A stretch of 64,000 bases of DNA from Salvia splendens (lineage: Eukaryota > Streptophyta > Magnoliopsida > Lamiales > Lamiaceae): assembly GCF_004379255.2 (NCBI RefSeq), contig NC_056033.1, positions 22,498,209 to 22,562,208 of the forward strand, written 5' to 3'. A program made the position numbers and the translations under genes. Positions 10,701 to 64,000 of the stretch are shown here, piece after piece; the stretch's first letter is position 1, and each line of letters opens with the position of its first letter. The notes under the pieces are model-generated. The model saw nothing but the letters and a program-made list of their open reading frames with translations, had not been told where the DNA came from and did not search any database.

Positions 10701-10781
10701 GTCGCTCCGAACAAAGAGCAACACCGTACTGATTATCAAGGAGGGCCTTCAACCTCTTTGGGTACGCACCCTTCTTGTTAA
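7718..10781 (+). pseudogene. LINE B ORF1, multiply frameshifted
   Basis: Same protein as LINE D ORF1 (about 1017 aa there): RNA-binding ORF1 with FPPLERGR-like block, EK-rich repeats, MADLL/MADML motifs, DUF4283-type domain, CCHC knuckle and MSTNQYYTLM C-terminus. The start at 7718 aligns with D. The frame is broken at several places relative to D, for example around 7910, 8590, 8757, 8935-8965, 9100, 9740, 9890, 9965 and 10275, nearly always by one or two bases. The stop TAA at 10779-10781 is followed two bases later by the ORF2 ATG. Such scattered small indels next to a scaffold gap may be consensus errors rather than mutations. Confidence 0.85.
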
Positions 10782-10783
10782 TA

Positions 10784-14953: not shown

Positions 14954-15011
14954 TCATGAGACGACGGGAGACAATAGTGACTAGCTTTGTGGTTAATTGT
15001 TTTTTGGAAAG

Positions 15012-15163
15012 GAGTATGATGAGGTCCGAACCTTGTGGGATCGGACCGCATACTACTCTTGATTTTGTTACGGCACACCACTTTTGGGTGTGGCCACGCC
15101 TTGTAATTATCTCTTGTGGAAATATAGGGATGAGGGACCCACGAACCCTCCACCGTAGAGGTG
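15012..15163 (+). promoter_or_regulatory. LINE 3' UTR structured RNA: long stem plus terminal hairpin
   Basis: Inverted repeats: AGTATG (15013-15018) pairs with CATACT (15049-15054), and GGTCCG (15023-15028) pairs with CGGACC (15042-15047). A CACTTTTGGG block follows, then the hairpin CACC-GTAGA-GGTG (15151-15163), eight bases before the poly(A). The same layout is present in LINEs D, N and P and in variant form in C. Proposed role: recognition of the template 3' end by ORF2. Confidence 0.6.
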
Positions 15164-23100: not shown

Positions 23101-23736
23101 GGCGGCAATCTTCAATAGTTTCCGCAAAATCAATCATCTCGCCCTGCCTATTGGTATCACTCCCAACCTGATCAGCATGTGAGAGAATCGAGTTGAAGTC
23201 CCCTCCAATTAACCATGGCATTCCATCCACTAGGTTCGAGATGTCCCTCATTTTGTCCCATAATGGGTATCGTTCCAATCTTGAGCACTTTGCATAGACG
23301 GCCGAGACAAAGATGGGGCAAGTCATGCGTTGGGAAGTTAACTTTCCATGTAGAATCTGATCTCCATCTTCTTCAATATCAAAATGAGCCCCTTCTTTGG
23401 TGAAGATCCAAACCTTGCCGTTTGTGTTAGCGCCTTTGAACTTTTGTCCGAGCGCCTTAGAGTATCGGTCCGGATTGGGGGTTGTGAGTGGCTCCATTAT
23501 TGCAAGAAACATAACATTGTGACATTTAATTAATCTCTTTAAAGAACTAGGAGAAAGTGAAGAGAGAGAAGCTACTCCTTCTCTCTAAAAACCCCACCTT
23601 TTTGTCTCACCGGAATTCGCCCCGCCACCCACCATCTTCTCCCTCCACCCACTCTCCCCCGCCACCCGCCTCTCTTTTCCCTTCACAACCTCTGCCGGTC
23701 CTAGGAGCCCCATCTTGAGTCCGCCCTCGCTCGGCG

Positions 23737-40300: not shown

Positions 40301-40347
<47 letters not shown>

Positions 40348-42029
40348 CACCCCGAGGGGCGGAGGGTTGAGGCGGACCCACACCTGTGCATTACCAAAAA
40401 CCAATCAAAACAGCCAACCATACACCGAGTCGCCCAAAAGTGACGACTCGCCAAGACATGACAAATTAGAGTACAAAGAGGGCCTCCCTAGCGACTAGGA
40501 TGGTCATCTATCTACTCTCAAAATTCCTATTACAATTTGATGCAACCTTTGCATCCCCAACGACCTTTGTCCATCACCTAGTTAAGGCCCACAATAGGGA
40601 TACCTCCGCAAGGGACATGCCCTCCTGGGTCAAGGACCTCGATGGTGCCCTCTATCTCCCGGTTGGGGGGCCCACATGCGACACTCATGGAGCAAATGCT
40701 CGAGTCATTCGCACCCGATGGGACACTCCCAAATGTCACCGTAGCAACATTCTCCTTCAAATGCCAATCATCACCGTTTGGAGCCTTGGTGTGCATACCG
40801 CCCTCATGTATCTTTCCCTTCCTCTTCCTCAACACCAATTGGAAGCCATCCTTGTCCACACTTGGGTGACTCCTACTAGCCACCCTTGGCTTTGCCGATC
40901 CCGCACCCGATGTACCCTCAAAGTTCTCCGCATGGTTGTTACAATCTTTGGCTTTATCCAATTGTCCAAAGGACGGTGGGGTGCCGGACCAAGCATCCGC
41001 CTTTGGACGCCACTCACGGCGGATGATCTTGGCGGGATGGCTCGAGTGGTTCTCCTTGGATGGTGCTCGGCGCTCCTTGTCTCTACCCCCGAGCCTTTCT
41101 TCCTGTTGCATGGCAATCCTCTTTCTCATGCCCAACATGTTTACAATTAGCACAGAAAAGTGGAATACGGTCCCATGCCACTTTGTACCGTGAATCTTTG
41201 CCTCGGATATTAAGGATGATCTCTTTCGTCGGAGGAATAGAGATGTCAATCTCTATGCAAATCCTCGCGAAGGAGAGTCGGTTTTGATGGATTGTAGCAT
41301 GATCGGCTTGTAGTGGCTTGCCTAGTAGTTTACCAATCGCCATGAGAGCCGATTCCTCATAAAGATGCGCCGGGATTCCCATGATGTTGCACCAAACGGC
41401 AACAACCGGCGACTCGAAGAAGGTATCAAAGTCCGGCGCCCACTTAAACACCCTCATCGGGTGGATCGCAACAAACCAAATGGGGTTCCCATTGGGGCCA
41501 TTTAAGACCTTAGCATAGTCGGCCATCGCTTGGAATTGAATTAAGATATGCTTAGCGTTCAAGTATTTCCAAGTAAAAGAACCCACAAACCCCAAACCTC
41601 CAAGGCTTTTTTGAATTTGGGAGGAGGATGGGAGCGAGTGTGAGAACTTTCCAACGACGGCTAGCCCTAGCTTCTCCGAGAGGTCGTCCGTTTCTGAATC
41701 GGAGAAGGTAAGGGTTGGTGTGCCATCAAAGCATCCGGCCTTCCCCACGGCTTTAATCTTGGTGTCATCCAAAGGTATTGGCTCGGCCTTAAAGGCCTTG
41801 AACGTGGCTGATTCTCCTTCCACGCTCCCCGACCCCTTTTGGGGGTGGGGTAATTTCGCCCCCTTCCAAGCTCCCGCCGGCGGCACCAGGTTTTCCGGCG
41901 AGTTTTCCGGCCGCTGTGCGTCGGGGGTCCGGTCCCCTTTGTGTTCTTCATGACCGATTGGTATGGGAGGAGGGTGTGTGGCACATGGAGTAGAATTTGA
42001 ATTCAAATTGCCACTTACCCAAAGAGAGC
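40301..42029 (-). mobile_element. Half-LINE 2: ORF1-only non-autonomous LINE, 5'-truncated
   Basis: 1.73-kb insertion with poly(A) (T run from 40301 on the plus strand), a 3' UTR of about 240 bases and the C-terminal part of an ORF1 protein; there is no ORF2. It is almost identical to the matching part of half-LINE 1 (fewer than ten differences seen by eye). It is truncated at the codons for GSLWVSG and flanked by a 17-bp duplication in gypsy J. Confidence 0.92.
40578..42029 (-). pseudogene. Half-LINE 2 ORF1 fragment (DUF4283 + CCHC), one-base frameshift
   Basis: C-terminal two thirds of the half-LINE protein: FDGTPTLTFSDSETDDL, the DUF4283-type domain (VVGKFSHSLPSSSQIQKSL ... MRVFKWAPDFDTFF ... 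LSFARICIEIDIS), the CANCKHVGHEKEDC knuckle (about 41155-41110), KDGFQLVLRKRKGK and the C-terminal CGPPNREIEGTIEVLDPGG ... GLN. Stop at 40578-40580. An extra C near 41090 (five C versus four in half-LINE 1) shifts frame just after KARG. The 5' end is lost by truncation. Confidence 0.88.
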
Positions 42030-44543
42030 CCCTTGTTGGCTTGCTTTGCATATTGTTCTGTCCTCTTTTCAATGTTGAGTCTTACCCTTTCATGCAATCT
42101 TTTCACCATTTCGGCCTTAGCTTTTCCATCAAGACTTGCACGATCTTCAATAGGTATTGGAATCAAATCTAGTGGGCTCAATGGATTAAAACCATACACA
42201 ACTTCAAATGGAGAAAAGTTAGTAGCAGAATGAACACTTCGATTATAAGCCAATTCAGCAAAAGGTAAGCATTCCTCCCAACTTTTCAAGTTCTTTTTAA
42301 CTAAAGTTCGTAGTAATTGAGACAAAGTCCTATTAACTACTTCAGTTTGTCCATCAGTTTGTGGATGACAAGTAGTAGAAAACAAGAGTTTAGTTCCTAA
42401 CTTATTCCTGAACACTCGCCAAAAATGACTCACAAATTTAGCATCTCGATCACTCACAATTGATCTAGGAACACCATGCAAACGGACAATTTCTTTAAAG
42501 AACAAATCAGCGATATGAGATGCATCATCAGTTTTGTGACATGGAATAAAATGTGCCATTTTTGAAAACCTATCAACAACCACAAAAACTGAATCTCTAC
42601 CTCTTTTTGTTCTTGGCAAACCAACAACAAAGTCCATTGAAATATCCTCCCAAGGTGCACTAGGAATTGGTAACGGTTTGTACAAACCATGTGGGTGTGA
42701 TTTAGACTTGGCTTGCATGCAAGTTATGCATCTTTTACAAATTCTTTCAACATCCACACGCATTTTAGGCCAAAAGAAATGTTCATGCAAAACATCCATT
42801 GTCTTATGGACTCCAAAATGCCCCATTAAACCACCACCATGTGCTTCACGCACAAGCAATTCACGCATAGAACCTTTAGGAATGCACAATTTATTTTCTC
42901 TAAACAAATAGCCATCATGCCTATAGAACTTGTCAAATGCAGCATGCTCACAAGCTAAATAGATAGAAGAAAAGTCCGGGTCATTATCATACATTTCCTT
43001 AATCAACTCAAAACCAAGCAACTTAGAACTCAAATTAGTGATCAAAATGTACCTCCGAGACAATGCATCAGCCACAATGTTTTCTTTTCCCTTTTTGTAT
43101 TTGATTACATAGGGAAATGATTCAATGAATTCCACCCACTTAACATGTCTCTTGCTAAGCTTACCTTGACCTTTCAAGTACTTGAGAGATTCATGATCCG
43201 TATGAATTACAAACTCTCTAGGCCACAAGTAATGCTGCCATGTTTCCAAAGCTCTAACCAACGCATATAACTCCTTGTCATACGTTGGATAGTTCAATTG
43301 AGCTCCTTTCAACTTTTCGCTAAAGTAAGCGATTGGCTTTCCATCCTGCAACAAAACAGCTCCGATGCCTACTCCAGATGCATCACATTCAAGCTCAAAC
43401 ATGTTATCAAAGTTAGGCAAAGAAAGAATTGGTGCAGTTGTAAGTTTTTCTTTAAGGAGATTAAAAGCATGCTCTTGTTTTTCTCCCCAATAAAAACAAA
43501 CATCCTTTTTCACAATTTCATTAAAAGGTGCAGCAATTGTACTAAAATCCTTGACAAGCCTCCTATAAAAACTTGCAAGACCACGAAAACTTCTAACTTG
43601 TGCTACATTGTGAGGAATTGGCCATTCTAAAATAGCTTTCACCTTCTCCTTTTCCATTTCAATCCCATTAGCACTTATAACAAAACCAAGAAAAACAAAT
43701 TTATCCATGCAAAATGAACACTTCTTGAGATTAGCATACAATGATTCTTTTCTTAAGGTGTCCAAAATAGCATGCACATGGTTAAGATGTTCATCCACAT
43801 TTTTGCTATAGACAAGAATATCATCAAAATAAACAACCACAAATTTTCCAATGAATTTTCTCAAAACATGGTGCATCAATCTCATGAAAGTGCTTGGTGC
43901 ATTAGTTAAACCAAAAGGCATGACTAACCACTCATATAGACCAAATTTTGTTTTAAAGGCTGTTTTCCATTCATCTCCTTCTCTAATGCGAATTTGATGA
44001 TAACCACTTTTCAAATCGATCTTACTAAAGACAACAGATCCATGCAATTCATCAAGCATATCATCTAGCCTAGGAATAGAATAGCGATACTTTACAGTGA
44101 TTTTGTTGATTGCTCGACAGTCGGTGCACATCCTCCATGATCCATCTTTCTTAGAAACAACAATTACCGGCACAACACATGGACTCATGCTCTCACGGAT
44201 TTTTCCTTTCTCCAACAACTCTTGCACTTGCCCTTGAATTTCCTTAGTCTCTTCGGGATTGGCCCTATAGGCTGGTCGGTTTGGTAGAACTGCACCGGGA
44301 ACAAAGTCAATTTGATGTTCAATACCTCTTAATGGAGGTAATCCACTTTGTTCATCCTCGGGAAAGACATCCTCGAATTCTTGTAAAAGAGACACAAAAG
44401 TACTTGACAAAGAAGTGGTTAATTCGTTAGTGGTAAACAAAGACTCTTTGTACACTACGATGAAAACACTCTTTTCTTTAACTATTGCACTCTTTATTTC
44501 TTTTGCTCTCACATAGAAATTCTTTTTTTCTTTTCCCTCATTC

Positions 44544-46544: not shown

Positions 46545-46880
46545 TGATATGGATTGGGATACGACAAAGGACCCGCTGGATATATTGATCCAAGAACCCT
46601 ACGTATAAGGTTTGACAGTGGACTCCCTTGATTGATAATCTGGTTCGATCCACTTCCAGAGCTTGGAAAACCTCGACCCGTTGGCTATATGATCAGCCAA
46701 GAACCTCGGTATGATTGAACGCCACAAGAACTTGCTCAAAGTATCTTGATAAGTTCCAAACAAATGAAAAACTCTACAAAGAGAATTCAACTCACAAGAC
46801 AAAGTCTATTTTCGTATTTGATCAATAGTGTCCTCAAATGACATGCTTACAAGCCTATTTATAGGCTAGAATGGACTCTT
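46545..46880 (-). repeat. Gypsy J 5' LTR remnant
   Basis: Ends (on the minus strand) with CATATCA at 46545 next to the primer-binding site. It is cut upstream at 46880, where LINE P begins, so only the R/U5-side ~336 bases remain, with the TATA box at its edge (about 46857-46866). Confidence 0.87.
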
Positions 46881-47303
46881 AAACCACATGGGAAAGATGA
46901 TTGCAGCCTTTGCGGCACCGCTGGACGCCCACTCATCTCTGGAGGCAGAGCTTAAGGCCATTCTCCTTGGCCTGAACATGGCAAAGGAATTAAACCAACC
47001 AATATGGCTTGAGGTGGACTCCGAGCAAGCGTTCAGGCTATTCAACGGAGCAAGTTGGGGTCCGGCCCATACTCGACATGAAGTTGCACGCCTAATAGCC
47101 TGCAAGCACCAAACTACACTTCGTGCCTCCTTCATCCACCGAGAAGGCAACAAGGCGGCTGATTTCCTCACCAAGATGGGCATGGAGAAGACTGATTTAT
47201 ACCGCATGACTACGCTTTCAGCCCCACGGTCCTTAAGGCCATGATCCGTTCGGAAGAAATGGGGATCCCTAATATCAGAGTTCGAGGAGATGACATCAAT
47301 TAG
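46881..47303 (+). pseudogene. LINE P ORF2 RNase H end
   Basis: Last ~140 codons of ORF2: GKMIAAFAAPLDAHSSLEAELKAI, LEVDSEQAFRLFNGASWGP, FIHREGNKAADFLTKMG. This is the C-terminal half of the RNase H domain, with its Glu, Asp and His/Asp motifs but without the first NTDG motif. A one-base loss near 47228 shifts the frame (…APRSL then RP stop); the ancestral end at GIPNIRVRGDDIN stops at 47301-47303. Confidence 0.83.
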
Positions 47304-47509
47304 CTTTGGAATCCACTTGTTGTGTTGATTGCTCTTTTGGAAAGAGTATGATGAGGTCCGGGCATTGTGGGTTCGGACCTTGTACTACTCTTGCTTATTT
47401 TGTGTAAGAGCATCACTTTTGGGTGTGGCCTTGCTCTCTACTTTTGGCCATGCAATACAGGGATGAGAGACCCACGAACCCTCCACCGTGAAGGTGTTAG
47501 TAAAAAAAA
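46881..47509 (+). mobile_element. LINE P, 3' end with short poly(A)
   Basis: RNase H end of ORF2 (to 47303), 3' UTR with stem (47345-47386) and terminal hairpin CACC-GTGAA-GGTG (47484-47496), then an 8-A tail. The left edge is a blunt junction with the gypsy J LTR; no duplication was found. Confidence 0.87.
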
Positions 47510-47915
47510 TGGGAGTGAAAATGCAAAGTTGGAAATCTGGAGCTATTCTGCTTTTCCAGCAGTCTGCTGCAACATTGCCAGCAACCGCTGGCGCCCAACG
47601 ACCGGTAAGCCAGTAGCGGTCCGCTCTAGGAATGTTATGCATTAAGTCATGACACGCCCAGCGGCCGCTGGAGAATGCGTGGCGATCGCTACCGAAAGTC
47701 CAGAGAGTTACGGGATGATTGATGGTGACTGCTGAAACAAGTGCAGCAACCGCCAGCCAAAGGTCAGAAGCCTCAGATCAACTCATGGCGACCGCTAGCC
47801 AAGGTGCTGCGGCCCGCCAGGAAAAAGCGGCGAGAAGAATTTGCCCTACTTTCTCTCCAAGATTTACCATATTTTGCAACTATTTTCCTTATATGAGAAT
47901 GGGCGATTTCTCCCC

Positions 47916-47923
47916 TATAAATA
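47916..47923 (+). promoter_or_regulatory. Candidate TATA box
   Basis: TATAAATA flanked by C-rich sequence, followed within ~40 bases by CATCAAAAAGAGATC. Confidence 0.45.
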
Positions 47924-48045
47924 TCCCCCAAAGCTTCATCAAAAAGAGATCTTCTCTTGTGCAAGGAGTTGAAGAAGGATTCAAGATCATCAAGGCTACA
48001 AGGATTCAGCCTTTGGGTTTTATTGCTTTAGTTCTTATGTTTTCA

Positions 48046-48120
48046 TTGTCTTCCCTTCAATCTATGTTTTTAGCTTATTGTCTTCCCTTCAATCTATGTC
48101 TTCCCTTCAATCTATGTTTT
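48046..48120 (+). repeat. Short tandem repeat, three copies of a ~20-bp unit
   Basis: Unit TCTTCCCTTCAATCTATG at about 48049, 48081 and 48099; copies 2 and 3 are directly adjacent. Confidence 0.9.
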
Positions 48121-49283
48121 CATGTGTATCTAAATTCATAGGAATCTAGGGATGTGTTAGTAACTTTTATTGGTTTATACAATTCCTATTTCTATTTAAC
48201 ATCCGTTTGTTCTTATTTTGTTTCTTCCATCATGGTGGAGGGTTCGTGGGTCCCACATCCCTATATATCGAGGCCACACCTAAAAGTGGTGTGCCAATAG
48301 AGACAATAGGAGTAGTAGGCGGTCCAAACCCACATGGGCGGACCTCATCATACTCCAACAAGAGCAAAAACAAGATCACCTATTCTAGGGAGGCTCTTCC
48401 CCTCGGACTTGAAGATTAGGGATTCCCACTTCCTCCATGCGGATCATGGCCTTCAAGAGCCGTGGAGCCGTGGATGTGGTCATGGGTTGGAATTCATCAA
48501 TCTCGGATCCCATTTTGGCAAGGAAATCAGTCGTCTTATTTCCTTCGCGGTGTATGTAGGTAGTGCGGAGGGTGAGGCACCGCTTGTGTAGGGCGATATG
48601 TACCATGGCCTGTCAGATATTTGCGTGCCCCAACCTTTTCCTTCCACCAATTTAATTGCTTGCTCGGAATCCGCTTCGAGCCATATTGGTTTCGCAAATT
48701 CCTTAGCCATTGTCAAGCCATGGTGCATAGCTAATAACTCGGCCTCAAGAGCTGAGTGTGCGGTGAGCGGGAGCGCAAAGGCTACTAGCAACCTTCCCGA
48801 GTGGTCTCGGATGAGGCCTCCGCCCCCGCTTTTCCCGGTTGCTTTGCAAAACGCACCATCCGTGTTAAGTTTCAGCCACGGTTGGTCCGGAGGGTTCCAT
48901 TTGACCATCATGGCTAATGGCTGCGGACTTCTTAGGGCGGCGTGACTCGGGATGTTGACTCCAAGCCGAACGCCCTTCCAATGCTTCGGCTTGAGGCTGC
49001 CGTTCGCCATGCTATTCCGGATGAAAGTGAGAGTCTGCCAAACCACATTGTTCGCCTTGAATTGGACTTCTTGGTGCTTGCTTCTATTCCTTTCTGCCCA
49101 GACAGACCAGAAGATAAGGTAAGGTATGAGGCGACTGAGATGTTTCCTACCCGGTTGCTGTAATCTTGTCCCCCAGACTTCGAGCCTAGTTGGTATGGTA
49201 TCGTTGATCCGAAGTGGTGGGGAGGAGCCTTCAAACCACCCATCAAATTCCCTCCACACCTTCGAAGCGCCCACTCCTTGGAT

Positions 49284-49301: not shown

Positions 49302-49657
49302 GAATGTCTCATGTGGGCTCCCCAACCGGGAGAAGGAAGGCTTCATCGAGGAACTTGATCCGGGAGGGATCGTTCATCGCGGGGGTATCCCTATTGCGGG
49401 CCTCAATTAAGTGACGGACCTTGGATTTTGTGATGTGAAGGTTGCACCATGTTAATTGTAATAGAATAGTGAAGAGTACATTGATGACCACTCTAGTTGG
49501 TAGGGAGGCCCTCGTTGTACTCTAATTGGTTTTGGCGAGACGTCACTTTTGGGCGGCTCGATGTTCCTGGTTGTTCGTTGCAATTGTCCTTAGCAATGCA
49601 CACGTGTGGGTCCGCCTGAACCCTCCACCCTCGTGGTGCTTTTGATTAAAAAAAAAA
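49302..49657 (+). mobile_element. Half-LINE 3, strongly 5'-truncated
   Basis: 356-bp insertion: the last ~35 codons of the half-LINE protein (CGLPNREKEG ... GGIPIAGLN, stop 49408-49410), a 3' UTR with stem (49474-49522) and terminal hairpin CACC-CTCGT-GGTG (49626-49638), and a short A tail after TTTGATT. It is a more diverged family member than copies 1 and 2. Perfect 18-bp duplication. Confidence 0.93.
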
Positions 49658-52037: not shown

Positions 52038-52056
52038 TCCCAAAGACTTCTTTGTT
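52038..52056. repeat. Half-LINE 1 target-site duplication (left copy)
   Basis: TCCCAAAGACTTCTTTGTT here is repeated at 54706-54724. The last two T merge with the poly-T run on this side. Confidence 0.93.
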
Positions 52057-52201
52057 TTTTTTTTTTTTTTTTTTATATAACACCCCGAGGGGCGGAGGGT
52101 TGAGGCGGACCCACACCTGTGCATTACCAAAAACCAATCGAAACAGCCAACCATACACCGAGTCGCCCAAAAGTGACGACTCGCCAAGACATGACAAATT
52201 A

Positions 52202-52250
52202 GAGTACAAAGAGGGCCTCCCTAGCGACTAGGATGGTCATCTATCTACTC
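52202..52250 (-). promoter_or_regulatory. Half-LINE 3' UTR stem structure
   Basis: On the element strand: outer GAGTA (52250-52246) pairs with TACTC (52206-52202), and inner CCTAG (52232-52228) pairs with CTAGG (52224-52220) around a 3-base loop. It corresponds in position and outer stem to the LINE 3' UTR stem. Confidence 0.55.
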
Positions 52251-52310
52251 TCAAAATTCCTATTACAATTTGATGCAACCTTTGCATCCCCAACGACCTT
52301 TGTCCATCAC

Positions 52311-54581
52311 CTAGTTAAGGCCCACAATAGGGATACCTCCGCAAGGGACATGCCCTCCTGGGTCAAGGACCTCGATGGTGCCCTCTATCTCCCGGTTGGG
52401 GGGCCCACATGCGACACTCATGGAGCAAATGCTCGAGTCATTCGCACCCGATGGGACACTCCCAAATGTCACCGTAGCAACATTCTCCTTCAAATGCCAA
52501 TCATCACCGTTTGGAGCCTTGGTGTGCATACCGCCCTCATGTATCTTTCCCTTCCTCTTCCTCAACACCAATTGGAAGCCATCCTTGTCCACACTTGGGT
52601 GACTCCTACTAGCCACCCTTGGCTTTGCCGATCCCGCACCCGATGTACCCTCAATGTTCTCCGCATGGTTGTTACAATCTTTGGCTTTATCCAATTGTCC
52701 AAAGGACGGTGGGGTGCCGGACCAAGCATCCGCCTTTGGACGCCACTCACGGCGGATGATCTTGGCGGGATGGCTCGAGTGGTTCTCCTTGGATGGTGCT
52801 CGGCGCTCCTTGTCTCTACCCCGAGCCTTTCTTCCTGTTGCATGGCAATCCTCTTTCTCATGCCCAACATGTTTACAATTAGCACAGAAAAGTGGAATAC
52901 GGTCCCATGCCACTTTGTACCGTGAATCTTTGCCTCGGATATTAAGGATGATCTCTTTCGTCGGGGGAATAGAGATGTCAATCTCTATGCAAATCCTCGC
53001 GAAGGAGAGTCGGTTTTGATGGATTGTAGCATGATCGGCTTGTAGTGGCTTGCCTAGTAGTTTACCAATCGCCATGAGAGCCGATTCCTCATAAAGATGC
53101 GCCGGGATTCCCATGATGTTGCACCAAACGGCAACAACCGGCGACTCGAAGAAGGTATCAAAGTCCGGCGCCCACTTAAACACCCTCATCGGGTGGATCG
53201 CAACAAACCAAATGGGGTTCCCATTGGGGCCATTTAAAACCTTAGCATAGTCGGCCATCGCTTGGAATTGAATTAAGATATGCTTAGCGTTCAAGTATTT
53301 CCAAGTAAAAGAACCCACAAACCCCAAACCTCCAAGGCTTTTTTGAATTTGGGAGGAGGATGGGAGCGAGTGTGAGAACTTTCCAACGACGGCTAGCCCT
53401 AGCTTCTCCGAGAGGTCGTCCGTTTCTGAATCGGAGAAGGTAAGGGTTGGTGTGCCATCAAAGCATCCGGCCTTCCCCACGGCTTTAATCTTGGTGTCAT
53501 CCAAAGGTATTGGCTCGGCCTTAAAGGCCTTGAACGTGGCTGATTCTCCTTCCACGCTCCCCGACCCCTTTTGGGGGTGGGGTAATTTCGCCCCCTTCCA
53601 AGCTCCCGCCGGCGGCACCAGGTTTTCCGGCGAGTTTTCCGGCCGCTGTGCGTCGGGGGTCCGGTCCCCTTTGTGTTCACCATGACCGATTGGTATGGGA
53701 GGAGGGTGTGTGGCACATGGAGTAGAATTTGAATTCAAATTGCCACTTACCCAAAGAGAGCCAACACTTCCTTCCCCATGCAAAGTAAGCTTTGTCTTTT
53801 CCCTCATTTGTGAGTCACATGCATCCAACTCCTCACATGTCACCCCCACATCAAGACAAGGATGCACATGCTCCCTTGTACCTTCCACATGCTGATGGTT
53901 GACCAGCACCATCTCCTTGGCTGTTACATCACCGTTCCGGCTGGCCGGCGCCGGCGAAGTTCCGGCTACCCCCTCAAAATCGGAGTCCTCTAAATCACAC
54001 GTTGGTGTACTCCCCTCCTTGTCTATTTGAGCTGATGCGTTCAGCACCTCCCCAACACAAGCTTGTTCAACCTCCGGCGACCCCCTCCCTTCACCCAGAT
54101 TTGATGTCGACTCCTTCTTCGGTTCATCTACCTCCCGGGAGCTGGGTTTGAATGGGGGGTCCACTAGGTCATCGTCCGAGATTCCGGCAGCAAAATACCG
54201 CTCATGGTCGAGAAGGAGTAAGTGACCCGTAGCTGTTTCGAAGGGGCCCGGCTTCGCCATTTGAGCAAACGTTCTCCTCGGATACCCATCGGAAGGCAGC
54301 TCTCCTTCCGGCGACGCCGTCCCCTCATCATTTTTTCCGGCGAGTAGCTCCTCGGCCATTTCGAAGATCATTTTCTTCTTGATTCGACTAACCCCCGAAA
54401 TAGTCTCAAGGCCTGCGCGTTTCAGCTCACTTCGGCCTCTCTCGGGGAAAGGAGTCCCGGCCCTCTTTGTCTTTGGCCGTGGGATGAGAGGGAGATTCCG
54501 TTCCGGCGAGTGAGGAGATTGGGTCGTGTGAGATGAGACCGTAGCAGCCTCAACCGCCGGTTCACCACCGGACTTCACCAT
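52311..54581 (-). CDS. Half-LINE 1 ORF1 protein (DUF4283 + CCHC), intact, 756 aa
   Basis: Complete open frame. ATG at 54581 (MVKSGGEPAVEAATV) is the first in-frame ATG. Order: low-complexity N-terminus, basic RPKTKRAGTPFPERGRSELKR, acidic middle, DUF4283-type nucleic-acid-binding domain (residues about 365-555, with VVGKFSHSLPSS, NAKHILIQFQ, MRVFKWAPDFD, LSFARICIEIDIS), CCHC knuckle CANCKHVGHEKEDC (about 564-577), a basic RKARGRDKERRAPSKE stretch, and KDGFQLVLRKRK near the end. It lacks the MSTNxYYxLM C-terminus of autonomous LINE ORF1s. Probable role: RNA chaperone that packages its own transcript for LINE ORF2. No partner ORF follows. The closest ORF1 in the window is the LINE C inverted piece. 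Confidence 0.9.
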   Translation of the reverse strand: MVKSGGEPAVEAATVSSHTTQSPHSPERNLPLIPRPKTKRAGTPFPERGRSELKRAGLETISGVSRIKKKMIFEMAEELLAGKNDEGTASPEGELPSDGYPRRTFAQMAKPGPFETATGHLLLLDHERYFAAGISDDDLVDPPFKPSSREVDEPKKESTSNLGEGRGSPEVEQACVGEVLNASAQIDKEGSTPTCDLEDSDFEGVAGTSPAPASRNGDVTAKEMVLVNHQHVEGTREHVHPCLDVGVTCEELDACDSQMREKTKLTLHGEGSVGSLWVSGNLNSNSTPCATHPPPIPIGHGEHKGDRTPDAQRPENSPENLVPPAGAWKGAKLPHPQKGSGSVEGESATFKAFKAEPIPLDDTKIKAVGKAGCFDGTPTLTFSDSETDDLSEKLGLAVVGKFSHSLPSSSQIQKSLGGLGFVGSFTWKYLNAKHILIQFQAMADYAKVLNGPNGNPIWFVAIHPMRVFKWAPDFDTFFESPVVAVWCNIMGIPAHLYEESALMAIGKLLGKPLQADHATIHQNRLSFARICIEIDISIPPTKEIILNIRGKDSRYKVAWDRIPLFCANCKHVGHEKEDCHATGRKARGRDKERRAPSKENHSSHPAKIIRREWRPKADAWSGTPPSFGQLDKAKDCNNHAENIEGTSGAGSAKPRVASRSHPSVDKDGFQLVLRKRKGKIHEGGMHTKAPNGDDWHLKENVATVTFGSVPSGANDSSICSMSVACGPPNREIEGTIEVLDPGGHVPCGGIPIVGLN

Positions 54582-54597
54582 GTGTCGGATGCAACAA

Positions 54598-54603
54598 TCA
54601 CAT
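54598..54603 (-). promoter_or_regulatory. Minimal start-stop uORF (ATG-TGA) in the half-LINE leader
   Basis: ATGTGA lies 16 bases upstream of the ORF1 ATG on the minus strand. Start-stop uORFs are known to stall ribosomes and tune translation in plants; a role here is inferred only. Confidence 0.5.
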
Positions 54604-55549
54604 TTCACCTCCCTCAAAGGGGAGGGAGGGAGAGAGGGCGGATTCTAGTGAGAAGGGAGAGCGTCTCTCTCTAAAAAGGGAGACGAGTACACTGGGGAAA
54701 ATGACTCCCAAAGACTTCTTTGTTCCATGTCTTTAACACTTTTTTGCTTCGTATCAACTTGATTTGGAGATTTAGGAGCCCGGCCGCCCCGGTGGGTTGC
54801 TCCCAACAGTCTTGGACTATCTCCATAAAGCTTTCATGTCGGATCCACATGTTTTGGAAGAGAAATCCACTTCCCCCGGTGTTAGGTCTTGTCATCGGGC
54901 CATGATCCGATGTTACTCTTGGCAAGTTGGTCACCCTCGAAGCCTCAAAAATCTTGGTCCATGCCTCGCTCACAAACATCCTGTCCAGCCTTTCGAACAA
55001 CCAGTTTTTGGCCCACGCGTACTCTACTCCATCGTAGCCCGGGTCAAGGAGGCGGCAATCTTCAATAGTTTTCGCAAAATCAATCATCTCGCCCTCCCTA
55101 TTGGTATCACTCCCAACCCGATCAGCATGTGAGAGAATCGTATTGAAGTCCCCTCCCATGGCATTCCATCCACTAGGTTCGAGATGTCCCTCATTTTGTC
55201 CCATAATGGGTATCGTTCCGATCTTGAGCACTTTGTATAGACGGTCGAGACAAAGATGGGGCAAGTCATGCGTTGGGAAGTTAACTTTCCATGTAGAATC
55301 TGATCTCCATCTTCTTCAATATCAAAATGAGCCCCTTCTTCGGTGAAGATCCAAACCTTGCCGTTTGTGTTAGCGCCTTTGAAGTTTAGTCCGAGCGCCG
55401 TAGAGTATCGGTCCGGATTGGGGGTTGTGAGTGGCTCCATTATTGCAAGAAACATAACATTGTGACATTTAATTAATCTCTTTAAAACGTTTTGGGTCGA
55501 CGCATTAGCGACTCCCCTAGCGTTCCAAAACATTAGATTGTAAGACATA

Positions 55550-56074
55550 TTAACAAGTTAGGTTCGTACCCGGAAGGTATGAAGGCCCTCCTTGAAACAA
55601 GACAATCCGTCGATCCTCCTCCCTTGTGTGTTCCCCGGCGTCAATTTGCAAAGGGGAATCCTCGGCATGCTCCAAATAAGGTTGGATATCCATTGCCGCC
55701 ACATTCTCCTCGCCACAACCCTCAACATCGTACTCTCCATTGTCCATGAGAGTGTAGTATTTATTCGTACTCATGACATCTCTAGACATCTCGTCTCCAT
55801 TCCATCCGTTCTCAATTGAGAATGGCCGAAACCCCCCACTCGAGCCTCCTCGTCCACCCTCGCGGGACTCCGGGGACATGCTTCGATGTGAGCCATCTCG
55901 ATCCCATGTCCCGTCCCTAGGTCCATTAACCACCTTAGAATCTCGGTAGGGGCCTCTTGCATGCTTGGTTGCCGATCTCTCCAATTGACCTCTTTTAGTG
56001 TTTTGCGGTTCCTTATCCAAGCCGCCCACTTCTCGGTCTTCTCCAACTATGTCCGGACCCTCCCACGCCGGTTG
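55550..56074 (-). pseudogene. LINE C ORF1, C-terminal part (sense segment)
   Basis: Region downstream of the knuckle: EKTEKWAAWIRNRKT, SMSPESREGGRGGSSGG, then DVMSTNKYYTLMDNGEYDVEGCG and the end GGPSYLPGTNLTC with TAA at 55552-55550. The YYTLM motif matches autonomous LINE ORF1s. The upstream part is found in the opposite orientation next door. A frameshift near 56029 separates the first residues. As a broken fragment it cannot function. Confidence 0.82.
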
Positions 56075-56400
56075 TTGCCCTTTGGTGTAACATCATTGGA
56101 ATCCCGGTGCATCTTTTTAAGGAATCAGCTCTCATGGCAATCGGTAAACTCCTCGGCAAGCCACTACAAGCCGACCATGCCACAATCCATCAAAGTCGAC
56201 TCTCTTTCACGAGGATATGTGTCGAGATTGACATCTCTACCCCCCCGATGGAAGAGATCATCCCCAATATTCGAGGTAAATATTCAAGGTACAAAGTGGC
56301 ATGGGACCGTATTCCGTTGTTTTGCGCCAATTGTAAGCATGTTGGGCACGTGAAAGAGGAATGTCACGCATCAGGAAGGAAGGCACGTGGTGGAGACAAA
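56075..56400 (+). pseudogene. LINE C ORF1, inverted segment (DUF4283 end + CCHC)
   Basis: Plus-strand piece reading VWCNIIGIPVHLFKESALMAIGK, LSFTRICVEIDIS, and the knuckle CANCKHVGHVKEEC (about 56320-56362), ending near ARGGDK. In a normal element it would lie just before the adjacent minus-strand piece (55550-56074). It is closely similar to the half-LINE 1 protein, which links the half-LINE ORF1 to the LINE C subfamily. Confidence 0.83.
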
Positions 56401-56668
56401 AGTCACTTGTTTAACAATGCCGCAATTGTAAGTTAGAGAGAGACGCTCTCCCTTCTCTCTAGAATCCCCCACCACGTTTTGAGTTCCCACATCGCCGCCT
56501 ACCCCATTCTCACTCGGCTCACCACTGTCGACGGTCCCCCTCACGCCCCCGCTCCACCAGCCACCCACCACCCTCCCGACCTCGGATTCTCACCAACCAA
56601 CCCACTCCTTTGGCTAAGGCACGAACAAAGCTCCGGAGCGGCTGGTGACTCGACTCACTCTCTCGATC

Positions 56669-59600
56669 ATGCCGGAGCTCCTGCCGGATCCCCCCCCGGA
56701 GTCCGAAGAACCGCGCACCATCTCGGACCAGCTAATGGTCCTCCGGTCGGCCGAGGACCCTCTCTCGGACCAGCCAATGACTTTCACGTCGGAGGAGTCT
56801 CCCTCCATAATTTTTCCCTGCAAGAAAGTGGCGAGGAAAACTTTGAAAATGAAGGTGAAGGCACGGAAAAGTACACCAGCCCCTCCCACCAAAGGCACTG
56901 GTCGGAAAAGGTTCGTACCCTCACCGATGCCGGAGGACAAGCAACTTAGGAAGAAGATTGATTTCGGGGCCGAAGGGAGCTCGCCGGTCGGAAGTCCAAA
57001 ATGCAAAGGCCCCATCTTCCCGACGTCGATGGAGCCCTCCCCTAATCCCAACGGTGAAGATGAAGCTAAGATTAATGAAGAACTTGCCGGCGCCAGAACT
57101 GTTGGCAACGCTCCGGCCGATGACCTTGCGGCCGGCGCAAACGCGGGGACCGGTGACGGAGGAGAGCACAACCCCCCACATGATGGCTGCTCGGAGAGAG
57201 ATGGCTCTAGCATGGGTCAAAAGGCCTTGGTGGACGCGATAGTCAACTTGCCCGAAATGGGCACAACAACAAAATCACTTTCCGAAAGTTCCTTGGCGCC
57301 TTGCCACTTCGGAACACCACGTGATGCTGGCCCCAATGCATCCGTTGAGCCCCCAAAACAACAAAAATCTAGCTCCTTTTTGCAGCAACCCAACTTTCCC
57401 GAATTGGCTTGGAGACCAAAACCTCCTTCCGAAAGTGGGCTAACTCCTTTCCGTCCCAAGAGCTCACGTGAGACGATTGTCGTGGAGGCCCCAACGCAAC
57501 CAACAAAGGCCGAAATCATCCACTTAGCCGCCTTGGACTCGGCGGAGATGCTAGACACATTGGTTGCGCAACCTCTCATTACGGCCGGTCACAAACCACT
57601 GGAGTTCCCCCTAAACTCTTCGGGATGCATGCAAAGTGTCACACACACACCTCGGGATGGGAATGAACCCTCTCTTGAGGACTTTCCCCCTCTCGAACGA
57701 GGACGAACTAGCAAGCTCCGAGCTACGTTTGAGGCTAGTTCGGAACATTACAGTGCGGAGCTCGGCCAGCCGCGACCGAAGTCGAACCCTAACGTCTACC
57801 GAGAAAAGCCTTTTACCGAGACGACGAACAAGGCCACGCCTAGTGCCGAGATGGTTGCAGTGACAAGAGACACACCAACACCCAACGATACGCCTATGGA
57901 TGATGCCGAACAGATCCTCACCGAGAAGGAAAAAGCCGAGAAGATCCACACCGAGAAAGAAAAAGCCGAAAAGCCGAGAATGGAAAAGCCGAGAAGGGCA
58001 CACAACGGCAACGTAGGTGCCGAGAAGATCCACACCGAGAATGGAGAAGCCGAACTCAACAATCCGAAGAGAAATGGAAACACACCTAAGTCCGCGACGG
58101 ATGCCGCAACACAAGGGCCGAATGTAGTTAATCAACTTGGGGGGGTAGAAGCTACACCGGGGCCCTCGCCGTGGCCGAAATCGATGGCGGACTTGCTTAA
58201 GGGTACCCCGTCGGGCTTGGCGAGTAACACTCTACAAGGCCGGGGTGAAGGCGCCGCAAGCCACCCCGGTCGGCCGAAAACGATGGCGGACATGCTCAAA
58301 GGCTCGACTGACCCTACCGGCCCCCAAGCCTTTGAACCGGATAAGCTCCAGAACATTGGATTTGCTTCAGTGTCCGACGGCATCCCGGCCATTTACTTCT
58401 CCGGAGCGGAAACTCAAAAGCTTGCTGAGAGCATGGGACACGCCATTGTGGGTAAGTTCTCTCACTCTATCCCTACGGGACTGCAAATCCAAAAGACCCT
58501 CGATAATATTAAACTTCGGTGTGGATTTAGTTGGAAGTACATTAATGCTAAACATATTCTCATTCAATGCGAGGACTTGGCGGACTATGCCCGAATCCTT
58601 GGAGGCCCAAGGGGTACGCCCGTTTGGCTCATTGACCGACACCCGATGAGGGTCTTCAAATGGTCCCCGGACTTTGATGCTTACTGCGAGTCCCCCATTG
58701 CGGCAATTTGGTGCAACCTAATTGGCCTCCCCATTCATCTTTTCGACCAATCCGCCTTATTCGCCATCGGCAAGCTTCTCGGCAATCCAATACAAATTGA
58801 TCGAGCCACGGCAAACAAGACTCGGCTTTCATTTGCCCGAATTTGCGTCGAGATAGACATCACAAAACCACCTACCGAAGAGATAATCCTCGATCTTGGT
58901 GGGCGAGAAACGGTGCAGCGAGTCCGATGGGATAAGATACCATCATATTGCCGAGAATGCAAACATGTCGGCCATGCAAGTGAGGTGTGCTATGCGACGG
59001 GCAAGAAGGAACGGCCGCCAAAGAGAAACTACCACAACGGCCCGCCAAAACAGCCACAACCCGAGAGACAGACCGAGAAGGGGAAGCAAGATATGGGGAA
59101 GAATGCCTCCAGCTCCAACGAATGGAAACATCAGGGGAAGAAGCAAGGCAAGGCCGGTGATCGACCAAACAATAACAAAACAAATGGGGAGGACTCCGGT
59201 GATACTTCCTGGGAGGGACCGAACTCCAAGGGTGACTCTACTTTGGGGAGCGGACCGAGCTCCGGAACTCAGATTGCCGGGCTCATTGCCGGGATCGAGA
59301 TTGGGAAGTCCCCACCGAACCGGGGGAATCCATTGCATCCCACCACCGAACCACCAACACCACGTGGGATCATGGACGTGGAGTGGGGCTCCCCCAATGC
59401 GAGGAGCTTGGTCTCACCAGTTCGGCGAGGGAATCCGAGAGGAGGCGCGCGCCATGCTTTGACAAGGGGGCGTGGGTTCTTCTCGGCAAAGAACCACATG
59501 AGCACTAACCAATATTATACTCTCATGGAGAACGGAGAATTTGATGTTGAGAATTGTGGGGATGCGGACGAAGACCTTATGGAATTGCACGTGGGGGCCG

Positions 59601-59722
59601 AGAAGTTAGGAGGCAACAGTTCGGCCAAGGACGCCGAGGAGGTCGCTCCGAACAATGAGCAACACCGTACTGACTATCAAGGAGGGCCTTCAACCTCTTT
59701 GGGTACGCACCCTTCTTGTTAA
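56669..59722 (+). CDS. LINE D ORF1 protein (DUF4283 + CCHC), intact, 1017 aa
   Basis: RNA-binding, particle-forming protein of the LINE. ATG at 56669 is the first ATG after the element 5' end. Order: N-terminal KSTPAPPTKGTGRKRFVPSP and EDKQLRKKIDFG blocks (residues ~75-105), SLEDFPPLERGRTSK (~335-350), EK-rich repeats (~410-465, EKIHTE units), paired SMADLLKG and TMADMLKG motifs (~503 and ~535), DUF4283-type domain (~563-740), knuckle CRECKHVGHASEVC (~760-774, CX2CX4HX4C), basic KERPPKRNYHN, and C-terminal MSTNQYYTLMENGEFD. The TAA stop is two bases before the ORF2 ATG. A very large ORF1 with no mammalian-type coiled coil, as usual for plant L1s. Confidence 0.93.
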   Translation: MPELLPDPPPESEEPRTISDQLMVLRSAEDPLSDQPMTFTSEESPSIIFPCKKVARKTLKMKVKARKSTPAPPTKGTGRKRFVPSPMPEDKQLRKKIDFGAEGSSPVGSPKCKGPIFPTSMEPSPNPNGEDEAKINEELAGARTVGNAPADDLAAGANAGTGDGGEHNPPHDGCSERDGSSMGQKALVDAIVNLPEMGTTTKSLSESSLAPCHFGTPRDAGPNASVEPPKQQKSSSFLQQPNFPELAWRPKPPSESGLTPFRPKSSRETIVVEAPTQPTKAEIIHLAALDSAEMLDTLVAQPLITAGHKPLEFPLNSSGCMQSVTHTPRDGNEPSLEDFPPLERGRTSKLRATFEASSEHYSAELGQPRPKSNPNVYREKPFTETTNKATPSAEMVAVTRDTPTPNDTPMDDAEQILTEKEKAEKIHTEKEKAEKPRMEKPRRAHNGNVGAEKIHTENGEAELNNPKRNGNTPKSATDAATQGPNVVNQLGGVEATPGPSPWPKSMADLLKGTPSGLASNTLQGRGEGAASHPGRPKTMADMLKGSTDPTGPQAFEPDKLQNIGFASVSDGIPAIYFSGAETQKLAESMGHAIVGKFSHSIPTGLQIQKTLDNIKLRCGFSWKYINAKHILIQCEDLADYARILGGPRGTPVWLIDRHPMRVFKWSPDFDAYCESPIAAIWCNLIGLPIHLFDQSALFAIGKLLGNPIQIDRATANKTRLSFARICVEIDITKPPTEEIILDLGGRETVQRVRWDKIPSYCRECKHVGHASEVCYATGKKERPPKRNYHNGPPKQPQPERQTEKGKQDMGKNASSSNEWKHQGKKQGKAGDRPNNNKTNGEDSGDTSWEGPNSKGDSTLGSGPSSGTQIAGLIAGIEIGKSPPNRGNPLHPTTEPPTPRGIMDVEWGSPNARSLVSPVRRGNPRGGARHALTRGRGFFSAKNHMSTNQYYTLMENGEFDVENCGDADEDLMELHVGAEKLGGNSSAKDAEEVAPNNEQHRTDYQGGPSTSLGTHPSC

Positions 59723-59727
59723 TAATG
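59720..59727 (+). promoter_or_regulatory. ORF1 stop / ORF2 start junction TAATAATG
   Basis: ORF1 TAA (59720-59722) and ORF2 ATG (59725-59727) are two bases apart, in different frames. Comparable junctions occur in LINEs A (TAATGATG), B (TAATAATG), C (TAATATG) and F (TAATCATG), always after TGT. Termination-reinitiation is the likely mode of ORF2 synthesis. Confidence 0.65.
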
Positions 59728-62700
59728 TCGTACAATCTCATGTTTTGGAACGTGAGGGGGATCGCGAATGCGCCCACTCAAAACGTTCTGAAAAGACTAA
59801 TTGGTTGTCATAATGTTTTATTTCTTGCAATAATGGAACCGCTCACACAACCGGACCCGGACCGTTTCTCTAAGGCCTTGGGGCTGTCCTTCATTGGTTC
59901 GAACACGAACGAGAAGATTTGGATGTTTGCGGAAGAGGGGTCCACTTTTGATATTGAGGTTGACTCGGAACAAATTCTTCACGGGTACCTCAAATCCCAC
60001 CGCCTTGCTAGGCCGGTGGCCATCTCAGCCGTGTACGCCAAATGTACAAGGGCTGAAAGACATCACTTATGGGACAAGATGAGAGAGATTGCCGGGCCTC
60101 TTGAGGGAACACCTTGGATCATCGGTGGCGATTTCAACACCATGCTATCTCACCAAGACAGAGTCGGAAGTGATACCAACCGGCAAGCCGAGATGGTAGA
60201 TTTTGCGGAGGCAACGGAAGATTGTAGGCTGCTTGACCCTGGTTTTGATGGAGCGGCATTCACTTGGGCCAAGAATGGCCTTTTTGAAAGGTTGGATAGA
60301 GTGCTTGTCAGCGAGGATTGGACTAAGACCTTCGAGGCTACTCGGGTTACGAACCTCCCCCGGATTGCCTCGGACCATGGACCAATTCTTGTCAGGTGCA
60401 CGAAGATGAACACATCCGCTGGAGCCAAGGCTTTCAGGTTCCAGAACATGTGGATCCGACATGAAGGATTCATGGCCGTAGTGCAAAAAGCATGGGAGGA
60501 GCCCACGGGGGCGGGTGGAATCCTAAACATTCAAATCAAGCAGGCCAGAGTTAAAAAGGCCCTTAAGAAGTGGAACAAAGAGGTTTTTGGAAACATCCAT
60601 GCTAATCTAAAAGAAAAGGAGGAAGAAATTGCTCTGGCCCAATCTTGTTTCGAAGCAAGGCCGACTCCGGATCACAGGACAGCGATCAACAAACACATTG
60701 CCGAGTACATCCTTTTGCTGAGAATGGAAGAAGATTTTTGGCGACAGAAGGCAGCTTTGAGGTGGCTTGCCGAGGGAGACAAAAATACCCGGTTCTACCA
60801 AAGCTGGGTGAAACAAAAGAGGGTTCGTCTCCGCATCCATTCAATACGTGTCAATGGGCAGGAGCTCACCGAGGAAGCCGAGATTAAAAAGTCCGCAGTG
60901 GAGTTCTTCCAACAACTCCTTGCCCCCAACAATCCGACACTTGAAGATCCAGACCTCGACCTAATCCAGCAGGTCCACTCAGCCGAGCAGTTCGCTGACA
61001 TCGCAGATGCTCCAAGTGCGGACGAGGTCAGGAGTGCCACCTTTTGCATTTCCGGAGATAGTGCACCCGGACCCGACGGCTTCTCGGCCACCTTCTATCA
61101 AGCCTGCTGGCCCATTGTGGGGCCGGAGGTAGTGGAAGCAATCAGACAGTTCTTCAGAGGGGCCTTCCTGCCGAGGAGCATCACGGCCACAAGCATAGTC
61201 CTTATCCCAAAGAAGGCATCGCCGGAGTCATGGACCGACTACCGACCCATCAGTCTCTGCAATGTTTTAAACAAGATCATTACCAAGGTACTCACCTCTC
61301 GACTCTCTCCTTTCCTCCCACAGGTCATCTCCCCAAACCAAAGTGGATTTGTCAAAGGTCGGCTCCTTAACGACAACGCACTTCTGGCCCAAGAGATGTT
61401 CCATGAGCTTGCTAGATGCTCCCCAGCACCTAATGTGGCAGTAAAGATTGACATGGCTAAAGCCTATGATAGGGTCCAATGGTCATTCCTCTTCAAAGTT
61501 TTACGCCGTATGGGTTTCCCGGATTCATGGATTTCACTTATGGAGAGGTGTATTGGGTATTGCTGGTTCTCGGTCCTTGTTAACGGGGCACCCTCGGGCT
61601 TCTTTAGATCAACTCGAGGACTTCGGCAAGGAGACCCGATCTCCCCCGCTCTGTTCGTAATCGCTGCGGACTACCTGTCCCGAGCATTAGATAAGCTCAT
61701 CCTCGGTCAAAAGGACATGACGTTCAAAGCCTCCCGGAGATGCATGGAGATCAGCCATCTAGCCTATGCGGACGACATTATCATCTTCACTCAAGCGGCG
61801 GCAAATCCTATGCGCCGGCTAAGAGCCTGTCTCGAAAAATATGAAAGAGTCTCCGGCCAACAAGTCAGCCTCGCCAAGAGTAATTTCTATATTGCCGAGG
61901 CCCATGAACATTGGGCAAACTCGATCCAGGCGGAAGGAGGCTTCTCTAGAGGGGCCTTTCCTTTTCTCTATCTCGGAGTCCCTATCTATCGTGGTGCCAA
62001 ACGCACGGACATGTTCCTCTTTCTACGGGAAAAGATTGCAAGAAGGATCTCAGGATGGGCACACCGTCACCTATCCTTTGGAGGAAGGCTTACGTTGATT
62101 AAGAGCACTCTTGAAGCGATCCCCTTGCACATCTTTCAAGCCGTCGAGCCCACGGCCGGTACCCTCAAGCAACTTGATCAACAAATGGCCCGATTCTTTT
62201 GGGGGTCTACGAATGAAAAGAAGCGGACCCATTGGATTGGATGGGAACAAATGTGCCGGCCCACTGATGAAGGAGGCCTTGGGATCCGAAAAACTATGGA
62301 GGTCCTCCGCGCCTTCAATATCAAACTTTGGTGGCGATTTCGGGAGCAAAACTCCCTTTGGGCAAGATACATGATGACAAAATATTGCTCCAACTCCACA
62401 CCGCTCACCTTGAGATTGCCGAGCAGGAGTAGCCCTACGTGGAGAAGGCTCTCAAGAGCATGGCCCCTCGCGCAACCGCACATGAGATGGCTAGTGGGAC
62501 AAGGGGACATCTACTTCTGGGATGACATTTGGCTTGGCAATAGCCCTCTGAGGGAACTTAGTCTTGATGATAGGGGAAGACCAACCACCCGGGTCTCGGA
62601 GTTCATTACAAATGGTGGTTGGGATGTGCCCAAGCTTCAACTCCTTCACAATCAGGCCGGCCTCCCTCAGCATGTTATCGATGGCATCATTAATACACCG

Positions 62701-63891: not shown

Positions 63892-63950
63892 TCATGAGAC
63901 GATGGGAGATAATAGTGACTAGCTTTGTGGTTAATTGTATTTTGGAAAGG

Positions 63951-63992
63951 AGTATGATGAGGTCCGAACCTTGTGGGATCGGACCGCATACT
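63951..63992 (+). promoter_or_regulatory. LINE D 3' UTR stem
   Basis: AGTATG (63951-63956) pairs with CATACT (63987-63992), and GGTCCG (63961-63966) pairs with CGGACC (63980-63985); same as in LINE B. Confidence 0.6.
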
Positions 63993-64000
63993 ACTCTTGA

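What the first reader, a model, noticed from the sequence alone, without database searches (positions are those of the whole stretch)
52057..54705. A plant 'half-LINE' family: ORF1-only elements that look trans-mobilised
The element has an L1-type 5' block, one intact 756-codon ORF1 (DUF4283 + CCHC), a 3' UTR, poly(A) and a 19-bp target duplication, but no ORF2. Two more copies (40301-42029 and 49302-49657) share the same stop, 3' UTR and tail and have their own 17-18 bp duplications, so this is a family and not one deletion. Its protein C-terminus differs from the autonomous LINE ORF1s, so it is not a simple internal deletion of the LINEs seen here. Mammalian HAL1 is the known parallel; I do not know of a described plant equivalent.
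Basis: partly seen in the sequence, partly recalled or inferred. Interest (0 to 1): 0.87.

Follow-up and report, generated by a model that had tools for sequence, protein, structure and literature searches.

The report
ORF1-only LINE family in sage centromeres
In centromere-like regions of what is almost certainly scarlet sage, an old family of jumping elements with very recent copies carries only the first of the two LINE genes and most likely spreads by borrowing the copying enzyme of neighbouring full LINEs, a plant counterpart of the 'half-L1' elements of mammals.

Summary
The element (52038-54724, minus strand) has one open 756-codon ORF1 (DUF4283), 239 nt from stop to poly(A), and a 19-bp TSD. 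The genome is almost certainly Salvia splendens. Own-genome searches, each scoring 40 candidates, gave 66 matches (2,056 candidates) for the element and 40 (827 candidates) for the diverged 49302 copy. Five lineages share the architecture: in 36 of 36 half-type ORF1 ends examined, poly(A) follows the stop after 210-243 nt, with no ORF2 before it. A copies are 99.2-99.9% identical; most loci tested have a TSD. Distant lineages show purifying selection on ORF1 (dN/dS 0.22-0.36; closer pairs 0.40-0.58). DUF4283 rows form one clade apart from local autonomous LINEs. The 3' ends share three hairpins with those LINEs. Half-LINE and LINE-type ORF1 matches cluster together on 15 of 15 shared chromosomes. 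Trans-mobilisation by the LINEs' ORF2 protein is the best explanation; it is inferred, not shown. Seven open-paper searches listed no plant precedent.

The parts
52038..52056 (.). target-site duplication, 3' side of the element
   Evidence: 19 bp, identical to 54706-54724; last two T shared with the T run
52055..52074 (-). poly(A) tail (read as T on the + strand)
52075..52313 (-). 3' UTR with stop codon; distant homologue of the autonomous LINE 3' UTRs
52080..52095 (-). 3' hairpin SL3 (approximate), just before poly(A)
52160..52182 (-). 3' hairpin SL2, invariant CACTTT in the loop region, compensatory stem changes
52201..52251 (-). 3' hairpin SL1, outer stem GAGTA/TACTC
52311..54581 (-). ORF1, 756 codons, open
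52314..52817 (-). half-specific ORF1 C-terminus (residues 589-756)
52846..52888 (-). CCHC zinc knuckle (approximate, read by eye)
52986..53321 (-). DUF4283 (PF14111), residues 421-532
54640..54677 (-). 5' block TAGAGAGAGACGCTCTCCCTTCTC, shared with the autonomous LINE starting at about 56433
54680..54705 (-). private 5' leader of this copy, not matched in the other A copies
54706..54724 (.). target-site duplication, 5' side of the element
40323..42030 (-). second A copy, 99.4%, 5'-truncated, 18-bp TSD, inside an LTR retrotransposon
49302..49657 (+). D-lineage copy, 78% to A, 5'-truncated, 18-bp TSD
56062..56407 (+). half-type ORF1 fragment (end of DUF4283 to just after CCHC), head to head with the minus-strand LINE

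Best explanation
A plant half-LINE: a non-autonomous retrotransposon family that encodes only an L1-type ORF1 protein. Steps: (1) its RNA starts at or a little upstream of a 5' block shared with an autonomous LINE [start site inferred]; (2) its own ORF1 protein is made and needed, presumably binding the RNA that encoded it [selection shown, binding inferred]; (3) the RNA's 3' end carries the same three hairpins plus poly(A) as the autonomous LINEs, so their ORF2 protein takes it for target-primed reverse transcription [shared hairpins shown, recognition inferred]; (4) it is inserted with TSDs of mostly 16-20 bp where those LINEs lie, in one centromere-like cluster per chromosome [TSDs and co-clustering shown, shared targeting inferred]. 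The ORF1-only design is old (lineages A-E, dS up to about 1.6-1.8 against C), and A and D copies are young.
For: Family: 66 matches; 13 near-full-length places besides the window copy, 99-100%; 40 matches, 97-100%. Architecture: (36 of 36 stop to poly(A), 0 with ORF2 before it). Independent insertions: TSD abutting poly(A) in 10 of 14 fetched A loci and both window A copies, 5 of 6 B loci at 4 distinct sites. ORF1 open at 755-756 codons in 8 of 14 A loci, at 678 in 2 of 6 B loci. Selection: A-D, 535 codons, dN/dS 0.34 [0.26-0.44]; A-C 0.22; C-terminus alone A-C 0.36 [0.16-0.58]. 3' module: 94.8% of cells paired, 12 cells with double changes, 0 of 500 shuffles reach either. Same zone: 15 of 15 shared chromosomes, median distance 0.24 Mb, 0 of 20,000 null draws as close. 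One DUF4283 clade, 100/99.
Against: No transcript, protein or mobilisation assay. Each search scored 40 candidates, so an autonomous relative with the same ORF1 could be missed. Loci were fetched because they matched half-LINEs, which biases the 36-of-36 count. Selection is less clear between close lineages: A-B 0.40-0.42, C-terminus A-B 0.58 [0.31-1.10], A-E 0.48 [0.26-0.88], B-E 0.49 [0.26-0.98]. The expected relaxation after insertion is not firm: 1.14 [0.40-9.00] between two D copies but 0.52 between two B copies. TSD not found for L016, L017, L019, L022. Two of five covariation measures were not above shuffles. The LINE survey rests on ORF1 matches, of which I saw ORF2 attached in one new locus. 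Co-clustering could partly reflect retention in centromeres rather than shared targeting.
Confidence: 0.84

Rival explanations
1. An autonomous LINE with the same half-type ORF1 plus an ORF2 exists elsewhere in the genome; the ORF1-only copies are its repeated deletion derivatives, and selection acted on ORF1 in that autonomous element.
For: 40 candidates per search were scored; the protein search that would test this directly did not complete (tries). A basic 'DGF' motif like that of the C-terminus recurs in other ORF1s such as P0003 and P0006 (by eye).
Against: 36 of 36 ends lack ORF2 before poly(A); the five lineages share one ORF1-3'UTR junction and a 3' UTR type unlike that of the four autonomous LINE 3' ends compared; none of the 12 database relatives that I read, of 14, has this C-terminus, and a search with the C-terminus alone gave none.
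Confidence: 0.15
2. Simple recent internal deletions of the LINEs seen in the window.
For: Shared 5' block and homologous 3' hairpins.
Against: ORF1 is only 56-59% identical to the window LINE at 56669 in the DUF4283-CCHC region, sits in another clade and has another C-terminus; the form is shared by lineages 51-64% identical in protein.
Confidence: 0.03
3. Copies multiplied by centromeric segmental duplication rather than by retrotransposition.
For: L024/L025 share a TSD and L029/L031 share a truncation point and flanks, so some copies did multiply this way.
Against: Different TSDs, tails and leaders in the other copies examined.
Confidence: 0.03
4. Processed copies of a host gene derived from a LINE ORF1 (a domesticated gene, as L1TD1 in mammals) rather than a mobile family.
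For: ORF1 under purifying selection between lineages.
Against: Copies contain an L1-type 5' block and the LINE 3' hairpins, and at least two lineages have many young copies. No single-copy source gene was looked for.
Confidence: 0.04

Closest known systems
HAL1 (half-L1) of mammals
   Same: ORF1 only, poly(A), TSDs, dependent on LINE reverse transcriptase (described so in the passage of PMC5322556 seen; Bao and Jurka 2010 itself is not held)
   Different: Plant DUF4283/CCHC ORF1 instead of the mammalian ORF1p (the latter recalled); diverged lineages that keep a half-specific C-terminus; 3' hairpins shared with the partner; clustered in centromere-like regions
Celine and Celine-like centromeric LINEs (poplar, tea, green ash)
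   Same: DUF4283 ORF1, centromere preference, nested insertion, TSDs (PMC11288735: abstract, passages, sections 11 and 13)
   Different: Celine is autonomous with both ORFs; no ORF1-only family appears in the parts that I saw
SINE/LINE pairs of plants (ZmSINE2/3 with LINE1-1_ZM)
   Same: Non-autonomous element shares a 3' hairpin with its L1-clade partner, with compensatory changes (PMC3747384, passages)
   Different: SINEs have no ORF; here the passenger encodes a selected ORF1
LINE1-dominated pericentromeres of Salvia splendens
   Same: The setting: 0.3-1.2 Mb regions with 93-573 LINE1 each (PMC8408255, passages)
   Different: The passages seen do not separate ORF1-only from autonomous elements

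Membership tests
LINE-derived half-LINE (HAL1-like) | ORF1 present and open, no ORF2 | tested here: met
LINE-derived half-LINE (HAL1-like) | poly(A) and TSD in many independent copies | tested here: met
LINE-derived half-LINE (HAL1-like) | moved by the ORF2 protein of a LINE partner | not testable with these tools
   indirect only: shared 3' hairpins, shared zone
mammalian HAL1 itself | ORF1 of mammalian L1 type | tested here: not met
   DUF4283 is the only Pfam match at E <= 0.001; so it works like HAL1 but is not a member
plant L1-clade LINE ORF1 | DUF4283 plus CCHC knuckle | tested here: met
   for DUF4283; CCHC by eye
Celine-like centromeric LINE | autonomous, ORF1 and ORF2 | tested here: not met
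Celine-like centromeric LINE | located in CENH3-bound centromeres | tested here: inconclusive
   one narrow cluster per chromosome; no CENH3 data
SINE | no protein-coding ORF | tested here: not met
   756-codon ORF; no scan for a pol III promoter was run

The most novel reading that the evidence does not exclude
The half-LINEs are not decayed LINEs but a separate, long-lived branch of plant L1 evolution: an ORF1-only lineage that lost ORF2 once, long ago, split into at least five subfamilies, keeps its own ORF1 C-terminus and 3' UTR under selection, and rides the centromere-targeting enzyme of LINEs whose ORF1 is only distantly related. With their partners they may help to build scarlet sage centromeres.
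Probability: 0.6. Interest if true: 0.82.

Novelty: new variant of a known kind. Interest (0 to 1): 0.74.

Why it matters
It extends half-LINEs, described to my knowledge in mammals, to plants. It gives a natural test of which part of a LINE carries centromere targeting: the passenger lacks ORF2 but shares the zone, which points to the ORF2 protein or the 3' RNA module. It also makes the cis-preference question testable, since a passenger that keeps its own ORF1 under selection while borrowing ORF2 separates the two proteins' template choice. Repeat annotations that count these copies as LINE1 would overstate the autonomous load of the centromeres.

Tried and rejected
Twin-priming origin of the 56062-56407 piece from the minus-strand LINE's own ORF1: considered because the two are head to head with a CGCCGG overlap. 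No shared repeat of 9 bp or more was found between 56390-56470 and 46800-48700; the LINE beside L024/L025, 82-83% identical to the minus LINE over about 230 nt near the end of ORF1, has a LINE-type DUF4283; and the piece falls in the half-LINE clade. So I treat it as a half-LINE fragment; the junction is unexplained.

ORF1-plus-3'UTR-plus-ORF2 element at L016: an ORF2 start lies about 110 nt after a diverged copy's poly(A). Reading the sequence showed two ORF1-only copies nested in the ORF1 of an autonomous LINE, whose ORF1 end and ORF2 resume after the tail. Similar ORF2 stretches after copies in L015 and L017 lie beyond the poly(A).

Viral contigs gave no relative; a database search with the C-terminus alone gave none at E <= 10 among 318 candidates.

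Target-motif comparison with Celine (first TSD base G or T): 11 of 13 TSDs by hand, but assigning the tail's A's to the flank biases this, so it is not used as evidence.

Mistake: one search was meant for the diverged C copy but used unoriented L016 coordinates, so it queried the ORF1 region of the autonomous LINE around it; I kept it as the LINE survey. 39 of its 40 matches cover only about the first 860 nt of the query, 18 of 40 at 92-100% and 22 of 40 at 78-81%. Only L037-L039 were fetched; L037 is the query's own place, L039 shows ORF1 followed by ORF2, and L038's ORF1 is interrupted. The correct C query (L016:1336-2444:-) did not complete.
Full report
What is there. The window element reads on the minus strand: a 19-bp TSD (54706-54724), a private leader, an L1-type 5' block, ORF1 of 756 codons (54581..52311), a 3' UTR, poly(A), and the TSD again (52038-52056). 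The sibling LINE at 20497-23543 shows the unoccupied site. ORF1 carries DUF4283 and a CCHC knuckle (by eye).

Where it is. The window is G000:C2:22498209-22562208 of an 805.9-Mb assembly. A database protein of Salvia splendens lies on a contig of 43,663,975 bases, exactly the length of C2. The published S. splendens assembly has 807.7 Mb and 22 pseudochromosomes with LINE1-dominated pericentromeres of 0.3-1.2 Mb (PMC8408255, passages). I take this as the organism; no tool named it.

It is a family. The whole element gave 66 matches from 40 scored of 2,056 candidates. Besides the window copy, 13 places match query 1 to 2591-2623 at 99-100%, and a further group, mostly at 89-92%, covers about the 3' two kilobases. 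I fetched 20 of these places: 14 A copies (L009-L022; L022 is rearranged) and six B copies (L023-L028). A copies with the window copy: 15 rows, pairwise identity 99.23-99.92%. ORF1 is open over 755-756 codons in 8 of 14 A loci; B has a 678-codon ORF1, open in 2 of 6. The 49302 copy belongs to a third lineage, D: 40 matches at 97-100% from 40 scored of 827 candidates, 39 of them over the full 349-nt query and one over 346. Of the eight D loci fetched, six carry the half-type ORF1 directly upstream, for up to 544 residues to the locus edge; L029 is the window copy and L031 looks like its duplicate. A diverged lineage C (L016, L009) and a lineage E (L015, L017) turned up near A copies.

No ORF2. 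Across window and the fetched loci L009-L036, 36 half-type ORF1 ends were found; matches stopping more than six residues short of the end were not counted, and the pieces at window 56062 and L011 lack the end. L029 repeats the window's 49302 copy, so there are 35 distinct places. In 36 of 36 the stop is followed after 210-243 nt by a run of eight or more A, in 0 of 36 by ORF2 before it, and 35 of 36 keep the exact motif ACTTTTGGG. Twenty-five half-type DUF4283 regions are followed by the half-type C-terminus; five of them (two in L016, two in L017, one in L028) have an ORF2 start 0.9-3.4 kb on, which lies beyond the copy's poly(A). Of eight LINE-type DUF4283 regions with an ORF2 start downstream, five have it at 798-881 nt and three at about 3.2 kb; four others had none within the locus.

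Independent insertions. TSDs abutting a pure poly(A) were found in 10 of 14 A loci (nine of 16-19 bp, one of these with a mismatch; one of 10 bp) and in both window A copies (no control was run there), and in five of six B loci at four different sites (12-20 bp; control stretches scored at most 9). L016, L017, L019 and L022 gave none; L028 could not be tested.

ORF1 is selected. Between A and D, 535 codons give dN/dS 0.34 [0.26-0.44]. A against C: 0.22 with dS 1.7 over 291 codons; A against B: 0.40-0.42. The part after the CCHC knuckle, which I have seen only in ORF1-only copies, gives 0.36 [0.16-0.58] for A-C, 0.30 for B-C and 0.28 for C-E; close pairs are less clear: A-B 0.58 [0.31-1.10], A-E 0.48 [0.26-0.88], B-E 0.49 [0.26-0.98] (the E row also includes the knuckle). 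Between sister copies the ratio is 1.14 [0.40-9.00] for two D copies and 0.52 for two B copies, so relaxation after insertion is suggested but not firm. These are Nei-Gojobori counts, rough at high dS.

Origin. In a tree of 31 DUF4283-CCHC sequences the half-LINEs (A, B, C, E, the 56062 piece, and L011, which groups with C) form one clade (100/99). A branch with 98/99 sets them, together with eight database proteins, apart from the S. splendens autonomous ORF1s. D was not in that tree, and several rows are long branches. So the family does not descend by deletion from the LINEs seen here, and one origin of the ORF1-only form is the simplest reading.

How it may recruit a partner. The last ~175 nt of A, B, C and D align with four autonomous LINE 3' ends. 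Seventeen named pairs in three hairpins are formed in 94.8% of cells, with 12 cells changed on both sides. No shuffle of 500 reached the percentage, the double-change cells or the covariation score, and sliding the partner by 1-3 columns drops pairing to 34-52%. Two other measures, the number of pairs with a double change (201 of 500 shuffles as high) and further pair types (362 of 500), were not above shuffles. I named the structure from these sequences, which favours it. A shared 3' hairpin between a passenger and its L1-clade LINE is what Ohshima described for maize and sorghum SINEs (PMC3747384, passages).

Same address. From I took 43 of 66 rows (23 lower-scoring rows dropped, mostly pieces beside listed copies), all 40: 83 half-LINE places, 74 of them on 21 of contigs C1-C22, which I take for the 22 chromosomes. 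On chromosomes with two or more, 69 of 71 lie within 1.5 Mb of their median. LINE-type ORF1 matches (40 matches, 27 on 15 of C1-C22; 18 of 40 at 92-100%, 22 of 40 at 78-81%) fall in the same zone on 15 of 15 shared chromosomes: median distance 0.24 Mb, largest 1.57 Mb, 0 of 20,000 uniform draws as close (lengths of some chromosomes were assumed). ORF2 attached to such an ORF1 was seen in one new locus, L039. Celine of poplar shows that such LINEs can target CENH3 chromatin (PMC11288735). No centromere mark was available here.

Novelty. Mammalian HAL1 has this architecture (PMC5322556, passages). Seven paper searches (listings only) showed no plant ORF1-only LINE family. The library holds open-licence papers only, and Repbase was not consulted.

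Noticed in passing
L014, L015, L016 (5' ends) and other A/B copies: Between TSD and element body lies a 5' leader of 0-26 nt (A) or up to about 55 nt or more (B) that differs between copies, but L014-L016 share ...aggccttgatgacttac. It looks like flank of the source copy carried along, which would allow parent copies to be traced; the search for a source did not complete.
   Followed up: partly
56062-56407: Half-type ORF1 fragment joined head to head to a truncated minus-strand LINE at a 6-nt CGCCGG overlap; it could be a twin-primed event using both RNAs, but no TSD was found.
   Followed up: partly
7505-15062 and 56455-64000: Two autonomous LINE copies 98.07% identical; the second has both ORFs open, 1017 and 1388 codons.
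   Followed up: no
L024 and L025; L029 and L031: Pairs that look like the same insertion, so local duplication also multiplies copies in these regions.
   Followed up: no
18650-20064: Minus-strand ORFs resembling a host splicing-factor gene (recalled resemblance, not searched) amid nested LINEs.
   Followed up: no
7432-7502: Run of 71 N at the 5' end of one LINE copy.
   Followed up: no
window 1-64000: G+C is 47.6% against 38.84% reported for the S. splendens genome, in line with the GC-rich LINE1 pericentromeres described there.
   Followed up: partly
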